Shown here: positions 5,610-6,507 of the stretch, piece by piece
How the letters are laid out: each line of letters opens with the position of its first letter
Numbering within the stretch: the stretch's first letter is position 1
Source of the DNA: Thermodesulfobacteriota bacterium
GTDB lineage: Bacteria; Desulfobacterota; Desulfocorpusculales; Desulfocorpusculum
Direction: 5' to 3'
Assembly (NCBI GenBank): GCA_028275295.1
Contig: JAPWUY010000111.1
Location: 1 to 6,507 of the forward strand
Length of the DNA: 6,507 bases
Made by a program: the position numbers and the translations under genes
Notes under the pieces: model-generated
Told to the model about the DNA's origin: nothing
The model's input: the letters and a program-made list of their open reading frames with translations, nothing else
The model's database searches: none

Positions 5610-6507
5610 ATGTCTTCGGTGAAGATCGAGAAGGTGGATCAGTGGAGATGGCGCATACCCAAAGAGGGAAAGATGCACACAGAGGGCCTTGTCTTCGCCG
5701 ATGAGGCCATGATGAACGATATTCAGAAAGATCAAAGCCTGCTTCAGGTTGCCAATGTAGCCACGCTGCCGGGAATTGTTGGACCCTCTATGGCAATGCC
5801 GGATATCCACTGGGGCTATGGTTTCGCCATAGGAGGGGTCGCTGCTTTCGATGTGAGCTCTGGCATAGTATCTCCGGGGGGGGTCGGATACGACATAAAT
5901 TGAGGCGTGCGACTCATGCGCTCAGGTCTGAGCCGCACGGACGTGGAGAAAGTGATACATCAACTGGTGGATGCGCTTTTCAGAAACATCCCTTCCGGGG
6001 TGGGATCCCACAGGAAGGACCTGAAGCTGGATCCAAAGGAGCTCTCCCGTGTTCTGGAGAAGGGCGTGAAATGGGCCTTGGAGAGGGGCTATGGCTCGGC
6101 TGATGACCTGGAGCATATAGAGGCCAGGGGATGCATACCAGGGGCCGATGCCTCCAAGGTGAGCGACAAGGCCATGGAAAGGGGGAAGGCGCAATTGGGG
6201 ACAGTGGGCTCCGGCAATCATTTCGTGGAAGTGGGTTACGTGGAGGAGGTCTTCGATGAGGAAGCGGCCAGGGTCCTCGGCCTGGAAAAGGACATGGCCA
6301 CGGTCCTGGTTCACACTGGTTCCAGGGGGCTCGGTCACCAGGTCTGCGACGATTACATAAAGGTCATGATGAAGGCCTCTAGGGAATATGGCATAGAGCT
6401 CCCGGATCCACAGCTTTGCTGTGCGCCAGTGGACTCACCCGAGGGCAGGGATTACCTGGCTGCAATGGCCGCTGCAGCCAACTTCGCCTTCGTGAACAGG
6501 CAGATGA
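5610..6507 (+). CDS. rtcB: RtcB RNA ligase with in-frame TGA (predicted Sec98), cut by window end
   Basis: RtcB joins RNA 2',3'-cyclic phosphate or 3'-phosphate ends to 5'-OH ends using GTP and Mn2+, in RNA repair and tRNA splicing. Residues 1-299 are present. Typical blocks are AMPDIHWGYGFAIGGVAAFD, SPGGVGYDIN (about 88-97), QLGTVGSGNHFVEV with Asn203 and His204, LVHTGSRGLGH with His235, and AAMAAAANFAFVNRQ near the edge. Codon 98 (5901-5903) is TGA where the family has the Cys that bridges both metals (Cys98 in Pyrococcus horikoshii RtcB). After it the same frame continues as GVRLMRSGL without shift or further stop to the edge. A SECIS-like hairpin follows at once, so I read it as selenocysteine. 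Other genes here use TGA as a stop. I chose the ATG at 5610 because AAGGAGGG lies about seven bases upstream; a TTG at 5547 lacks this. The later metal and GMP histidines lie beyond the window. Confidence 0.93.
5901..5939 (+). promoter_or_regulatory. Bacterial SECIS element directing Sec insertion in rtcB
   Basis: Immediately after the TGA codon (5901-5903) the mRNA folds into two stacked stems. The lower stem is CGTGCG (5906-5911) with CGCACG (5934-5939). The upper stem is GCTCA (5920-5924) with TGAGC (5929-5933), closed by the loop GGTC (5925-5928). The bases CAGGTCTG around the loop match, from memory, the tip of the E. coli fdhF SECIS that binds SelB. The loop begins 21 bases after the TGA, inside the working range of known bacterial elements (18 in fdhF). 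The 5' side carries an eight-base bulge, larger than the single bulged U of fdhF. The element lies entirely within coding sequence, as expected in bacteria. Confidence 0.82.

What the first reader, a model, noticed from the sequence alone, without database searches (positions are those of the whole stretch)
5610..6507. RtcB RNA ligase with selenocysteine in place of its catalytic metal-binding cysteine
The only interruption of an otherwise well-conserved rtcB frame is a TGA at codon 98. In the GYDIN-C-GVR motif this is the cysteine that bridges the two Mn2+ ions (Cys98 in P. horikoshii). Frame and homology continue on both sides, and TGA acts as an ordinary stop in the other genes here. Cys-to-Sec exchange at a catalytic cysteine, with a SECIS-like hairpin right after it, is the pattern of a true selenoprotein. 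I am not aware of a characterised Sec-containing RtcB; I cannot confirm novelty without a search. Inference: a selenolate ligand could change Mn2+ affinity, guanylylation rate or recovery from oxidation, as RtcB is known to be oxidation-sensitive through this cysteine.
Basis: partly seen in the sequence, partly recalled or inferred. Interest (0 to 1): 0.95.

Follow-up and report, generated by a model that had tools for sequence, protein, structure and literature searches.

The report
RNA ligase RtcB with selenocysteine
In this bacterium and in 80 other bacterial genomes found here, the gene for the RNA-repair enzyme RtcB has the codon UGA exactly where the enzyme's metal-holding cysteine normally sits, so they likely build it with the rare selenium amino acid selenocysteine, which would tie RNA repair to selenium supply.

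Summary
The window carries the first 299 codons of rtcB with one in-frame stop, TGA at codon 98 (5901-5903), aligned with Cys98 of P. horikoshii RtcB, which binds both Mn2+ ions. The intact 3' part lies on another contig of the same genome. TGA at this codon was found in 81 genomes (deltaproteobacterial, Nitrospirota and Acidobacteriota MAGs mostly); no RtcB row showed TAA or TAG. SelB passes its cut-off in 73 of 79 such genomes tested; the window's genome also has SelA and tRNASec, while SelD was not found in its 81%-complete assembly. A hairpin follows the TGA in nearly all Sec genes, in two architectures, one class of each with compensatory changes; Cys genes mostly lack it. The window's apex, CAGGTCTG, equals that of E. 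coli fdhF. On the RtcB tree Cys and Sec exchange at least 20 times. In 71 of 72 Sec genomes it is the only close RtcB copy. A 2026 inventory of 119 prokaryotic selenoprotein families does not list RtcB. Selenocysteine insertion is inferred: no protein data. The advantage (oxidation tolerance, selenium control) is untested.

The parts
5610..6507 (+). 5' part (299 codons) of rtcB, cut by the contig end; 3' part on G000:C200
5901..5903 (+). in-frame TGA, codon 98, predicted selenocysteine at the Cys98 position
   Evidence: recurrence
5917..5937 (+). predicted SECIS hairpin; core stem 5920-5933, apical loop 5925-5928 within CAGGTCTG 5923-5930
5892..5894 (+). Asp95, metal ligand by alignment
   Evidence: role from PMC10630183
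6219..6221 (+). His204, equals His203 of P. horikoshii, metal ligand by alignment
6312..6314 (+). His235, equals His234 of P. horikoshii, metal ligand by alignment
5001..5417 (+). archease gene upstream of rtcB; archease family members activate RtcB-type ligases (abstract of PMC10944509)
   Evidence: PF01951 129.5 bits

Best explanation
The window holds an rtcB gene whose codon for the active-site metal-bridging cysteine is UGA, which is predicted to be read as selenocysteine by the SelA/SelB/tRNASec system with the help of a predicted SECIS hairpin just downstream. Shown here: the codon, its recurrence in 81 genomes, open and purifying-selected coding sequence on both sides, the conserved hairpin, the machinery, and repeated Cys/Sec exchange on the tree. 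Inferred: that SelB binds the hairpin, that full-length Sec-RtcB is made, and that it is a working RNA ligase in which a selenolate instead of a thiolate bridges the two metal ions. Most likely reason, untested: the RtcB cysteine is prone to metal-driven oxidation, and selenocysteine, whose oxidised forms are easier to reduce (established selenium chemistry, recalled), would let the enzyme recover; as this is usually the only close RtcB copy, RNA ligation would then depend on selenium.
For: One TGA, same codon, in 81 genomes; no TAA or TAG in any RtcB row. 120 of the 120 best of 4071 N-terminal protein clusters end exactly at GYDIN; 120 of 120 best full-length relatives have Cys there. SelB over cut-off in 73 of 79 Sec genomes tested; SelA, SelB, tRNASec in the window's genome. 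Hairpin: mean z -1.38 in 80 Sec genes, -0.26 in 22 Cys genes; compensatory pairs; criterion met in 53 of 55 non-Nitrospirota Sec and 0 of 22 Cys genes. fdhF-like apex. At least 20 Cys/Sec changes on the tree. dN below dS after the TGA in 8 of 8 pairs. Sole close RtcB in 71 of 72 Sec genomes.
Against: No protein evidence. SelD not found in the window's genome. Six of 79 Sec genomes lack SelB over cut-off; G066 lacks SelA, SelB, SelD and tRNASec over cut-off. L088 (Thauera) lacks the hairpin classes seen elsewhere and L044 misses the criterion. The window's hairpin class is nearly invariant, so shows no covariation; only 27 of 80 Sec genes reach p 0.05 one by one. Two Nitrospirota Cys genes score 8 of 9 pairs. 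SelB does not separate Sec from Cys genomes in these phyla. Engineered P. horikoshii RtcB U98 cleaved spontaneously in E. coli (PMC4150793).
Confidence: 0.9

Rival explanations
1. UGA is read as cysteine, by a selC-like tRNACys or by cysteine loaded through the Sec pathway, so the enzyme is an ordinary Cys-RtcB made through UGA.
For: A tRNASec-shaped tRNACys is in the window's genome (L033); [quoted passage not shown]
Against: Here that tRNA has a GCA anticodon, which does not pair with UGA; the UCA reader is a tRNASec with the G73 discriminator. Other Sec genomes were not checked for UCA versions.
Confidence: 0.05
2. The TGA is a pseudogene mutation or a sequencing or assembly error.
For: One base separates TGA from TGC; the assembly is fragmented (478 contigs).
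Against: Same codon in 81 genomes, one stop only and never TAA or TAG; frame intact on both sides, dN below dS; no other RtcB copy in most.
Confidence: 0.02
3. Two separate proteins: a 97-residue N-part and a C-part restarted just after the TGA.
For: A GTG codon stands at 5907.
Against: The split removes the one residue that binds both metals; it explains neither the UGA-only bias, nor the hairpin, nor the Cys/Sec exchanges.
Confidence: 0.02

Closest known systems
Cys-type RtcB (P. horikoshii PH1602, PDB 1uc2; human RTCB)
   Same: Same family, length and metal-ligand motifs; 120 of 120 best full-length relatives are Cys-type, up to 77% identical
   Different: Here the bridging cysteine codon is UGA, followed by a hairpin
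Engineered P. horikoshii RtcB U98 (PMC4150793)
   Same: Sec at the same residue
   Different: Made artificially from UAG in E. coli without SECIS, and cleaved spontaneously; here the UGA form occurs in nature with a SECIS candidate (passages)
Formate dehydrogenase H (E. coli fdhF) and [NiFeSe] hydrogenases, selenoproteins with a metal-bound Sec (PMC13188914, read)
   Same: Sec as a metal ligand; UGA with downstream hairpin, the window sharing the fdhF apex CAGGTCTG
   Different: There Sec binds Mo/W or Ni in redox enzymes; here the inferred site is two Mn2+ ions in a ligase
Intein-containing RtcB (NCBIfam NF038162)
   Same: Same RtcB family; NF038162 is the best NCBIfam match of the window's protein (427.1 bits, cut-off 1150)
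   Different: No intein here

Membership tests
RtcB RNA ligase | PF01139 domain over the whole length | tested here: met
   343.8 and 307.6 bits for the two parts, profile 1-250 and 210-426 of 426
RtcB RNA ligase | metal and GMP residues Asp95, His203, His234, His329, His404 | tested here: met
   Asp95, His203, His234 aligned in the window. Motifs in 60 Sec proteins over 440 residues: GSGNH 59, HTGSR 54 (L087 HSGSR, L088 HCGSR; four others not looked at), HN 60, CHGxGR 59 (L113 SHGAGR); Asp95 is part of the search pattern
RtcB RNA ligase | cysteine at position 98 | tested here: not met
   TGA in the DNA; Sec, a cysteine analogue, is inferred
RtcB RNA ligase | 3'-phosphate/5'-OH ligation | not testable with these tools
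   needs an assay
bacterial selenoprotein | in-frame UGA opposite a conserved Cys of homologues | tested here: met
bacterial selenoprotein | SECIS hairpin after the UGA | tested here: met
   predicted and conserved; SelB binding untested; no Rfam match
bacterial selenoprotein | SelA, SelB, tRNASec and SelD in the genome | tested here: inconclusive
   SelA, SelB, tRNASec met; SelD not found in an 81%-complete assembly, present in same-family G001
bacterial selenoprotein | selenium in the protein | not testable with these tools
   needs 75Se or mass spectrometry

The most novel reading that the evidence does not exclude
A widespread natural selenium-dependent RNA ligase: a selenolate-bridged two-metal centre does RNA-repair and splicing chemistry, SelB-dependent recoding makes the sole RtcB of these bacteria rise and fall with selenium, and the UGA-plus-hairpin module has been exchanged with Cys many times.
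Probability: 0.6. Interest if true: 0.92.

Novelty: new variant of a known kind. Interest (0 to 1): 0.87.

Why it matters
It would add an RNA ligase to the selenoproteins; none of the 119 families of the 2026 inventory whose Table 1 I read in full is one. It would put an RNA-repair enzyme under selenium control, offers a natural Cys/Sec comparison at a catalytic metal bridge, and makes testable whether Sec meets the oxidation weakness that metazoans meet with PYROXD1 (PMC12263435, abstract and passages). The 120 closest N-terminal entries in the protein collection are 97-112 residue stubs cut at this codon, some named RtcB.

Tried and rejected
Viral contigs: 0 pattern matches. Rfam on 5850-6050: nothing at E up to 1. 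Phage RtcBs: 321 records match, all under 60% identity, 5 listed, not followed. SelB as a discriminator between Sec and Cys genomes: rejected. Of 21 genomes among G001-G030 whose RtcB match has no stop, 20 have SelB over cut-off, and all seven Cys-RtcB Nitrospirota genomes nearest the Sec forms have it too; loss of machinery is therefore not shown as the cause of Sec-to-Cys change. The apex 8-mer alone is weak evidence: 20 of 80 Sec and 0 of 42 Cys genes within 60 nt of codon 98, but 31 further copies elsewhere in the same Sec genes. No structure prediction was run.

Dropped rows: L052, L066, L096, L121 (pattern hits that are not RtcB) before all counts. L004 and L008 left out of the Sec set as the same genomes as L061 and L063. 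L045, L065, L070, L079, L082 (short) and L170 (the same genome as L071) left out of the tree. L088 left out of the DNA alignments but counted. L056 and L078 lie in genomes not held, so no SelB search. Eight of 30 Nitrospirota-sample loci did not match the script's motif and are neither in the tree nor in the Cys counts. Of the 120 full-length proteins (every fifth) were put forward for the tree and 23 entered. One search examined 72 Sec genomes; G000, G001, G002, G009, G011, G012 were examined; L056 and L078 in neither.

Full report
Observation. The rtcB frame starts at 5610; codon 98 (5901-5903) is TGA and is the only in-frame stop up to the contig end. The missing 3' part lies on contig C200 of the same genome, with 42 overlapping residues at 100% identity, and stays open to the C-terminus. 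PF01139 matches both parts. Upstream on the same strand lies archease, whose human relative activates RTCB (PMC10944509, abstract start in a search listing). An archease-like ORF was found in 42 of 80 Sec-rtcB loci, a lower bound because loci are cut and the script keeps only the longest of overlapping ORFs.

Which residue. The alignment to PDB 1uc2 (P. horikoshii PH1602) puts the TGA on Cys98. A review says that Cys98 binds both Mn2+ ions, with Asp95 and His203 at one and His234 and His329 at the other, and that the metal-binding cysteine was found oxidised in aerobically purified P. horikoshii RtcB (PMC10630183, passages). The human active-site cysteine is prone to metal-induced oxidation and PYROXD1 shields it (PMC12263435, abstract and passages).

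Recurrence. Of 39 genomes (G000 and 38 relatives), 34 have an RtcB match and 6 have exactly one in-frame TGA, in all six at this codon. By record title they are deltaproteobacterial/Desulfobacterota, Nitrospirota and Acidobacteriota MAGs for the most part, with one Planctomycetota and one Thauera MAG and a few of unspecific title. Two relatives recur in this set (G002 = L061, G011 = L063), so 76 plus G000, G001, G009, G012 and G144 make 81 genomes. No RtcB row or 66 has TAA or TAG inside. In the protein collection 4071 clusters match the 97-residue N-part; the 120 best, the only ones listed, all end in GYDIN, i.e. are cut at this codon. The 120 best full-length relatives all have Cys there. 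In a phylum sample of 71 genomes centred on G064, itself a Sec genome, 56 match; besides the centre only one (G144) has the TGA, so the Sec form is a minority in that phylum.

Machinery. SelB is over its cut-off in 73 of 79 Sec-RtcB genomes tested: 43 of 48 reached through loci plus G001, G009 and G012, 26 of 27, and G144. Of the six without, G011, G063 and G078 have SelA, SelD and tRNASec over cut-off; G043 has SelD over cut-off but only low-scoring SelA and SelB matches and no tRNASec over cut-off; G093 has only a fragmentary SelB-like match and was not tested further; G066 (Magnetobacterium casense) has none of the four over cut-off. The window's genome has SelA (567.5 bits), SelB (371.2) and tRNASec with UCA anticodon (74.4); SelD did not reach the cut-off, in an assembly rated 80.97% complete. 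Same-family genome G001, rated 100% complete, has all four, its SelD with a TGA. SelB does not discriminate within these phyla: 20 of 21 relatives whose RtcB match has no stop also have it, as do the seven Nitrospirota Cys genomes nearest the Sec forms.

Hairpin. Against shuffles that keep the protein and draw on the gene's codon use, the 45 nt after codon 98 fold more stably than expected in Sec genes (mean z -1.38, n 80; 27 with p at most 0.05) but hardly in Cys genes (-0.26, n 22; 3 with p at most 0.05); of ten offsets tried in Sec genes, this one is the lowest. Two architectures occur. In non-Nitrospirota genes the apical loop lies about 22-26 nt after the TGA: a class of 39, to which the window belongs, is nearly invariant (94.2% of cells paired, 7-40% when slid, no covariation), and a class of 15 shows compensatory change (94.3% paired, 28-49% slid; covariation 0.488 against 0.163 shuffled). 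In 25 genes grouped as Nitrospirota (by title, L115 by the tree) the loop lies further down; 88.9% of cells are paired against 40-56% slid, and 5 of 9 pairs change on both sides. These structures were fitted by eye to the same sequences, which favours them over slid versions; the Cys genes are the independent control. The criterion is met in 53 of 55 non-Nitrospirota Sec genes (not L044 or L088) and 0 of 22 Cys genes. Nitrospirota Sec genes form 6 to 9 of 9 pairs, the 20 Cys genes of that sample 3 to 8, with L162 and L176 at 8, perhaps relics. The window's apex, CAGGTCTG (5923-5930), equals that after the Sec codon of E. coli fdhF and lies one codon further from the TGA.

Evolution and selection. 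On a 141-row tree (76 Sec, 65 Cys; quick method) with column 98 masked, Cys/Sec needs at least 20 changes (46.8 when shuffled; at least 7 forced by starred branches). dN is below dS after the TGA in 8 of 8 pairs (ungapped comparison). In 72 Sec genomes each has one TGA copy; only G106 has a second close copy, without the stop, and G040, G046 and G074 have distant or partial ones.

Literature. Searches for RtcB with selenoprotein (3 papers), RtcB with selenocysteine (6), tRNA-splicing ligase with selenoprotein (2), and RNA ligase with selenoprotein, selenocysteine and bacteria (11) list no natural Sec-RtcB by title and abstract start. The 2026 inventory PMC13188914 lists 119 families or subfamilies; Table 1 was read in full and has no RtcB. 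PMC9312934, PMC12013277, PMC1914089 and PMC5029168 have no hit for 'rtc' or 'ligase' in the main text. The library is open-access only and supplements were not read, so a report elsewhere is possible. Engineered P. horikoshii RtcB U98 cleaved spontaneously in E. coli (PMC4150793, passages), a caution for the functional reading.

Mechanism and limits. Reading of UGA by SelB and tRNASec at the hairpin follows established bacterial selenoprotein biology and is inferred here, not shown. The selenolate bridge follows from the Cys98 role. Oxidation recovery and selenium control are untested inference.

Noticed in passing
G000:C262:3336-3430 (L033 1498-1594, minus): A tRNA of tRNASec shape (RF01852, 58.6 bits) with GCA anticodon and U73: a selC-like tRNACys, a kind described in PMC7609411.
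   Followed up: partly
L088 4525-4575 (minus), Thauera MAG: RtcB with GVGFDIS-TGA-GVRT in a genome with SelA, SelB, SelD and tRNASec over cut-off, but without the hairpin classes seen elsewhere: independent gain or error, undecided.
   Followed up: partly
L176 and L162 (Nitrospirota Cys rtcB): Cys genes near Sec forms on the tree that still form 8 of 9 hairpin pairs, possible relics of a Sec past.
   Followed up: partly
G106 (L115, BMS3Bbin05): Holds both a Sec-type and a stop-free RtcB, each 58% identical to the window's protein.
   Followed up: no
L073 (G066, Magnetobacterium casense MYR-1): TGA rtcB without SelA, SelB, SelD or tRNASec over cut-off: incomplete assembly or true loss, undecided.
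   Followed up: partly
window 4010-4816 (minus): Cytidylate-kinase-like domain joined to a BON domain.
   Followed up: no
window 786-3719 (minus): AAA_5 ATPase beside a 693-aa protein with a weak DUF5682 match just below its cut-off.
   Followed up: no
window 3-356 (minus): Fragment with weak similarity to an IS1380 transposase at the contig end.
   Followed up: no
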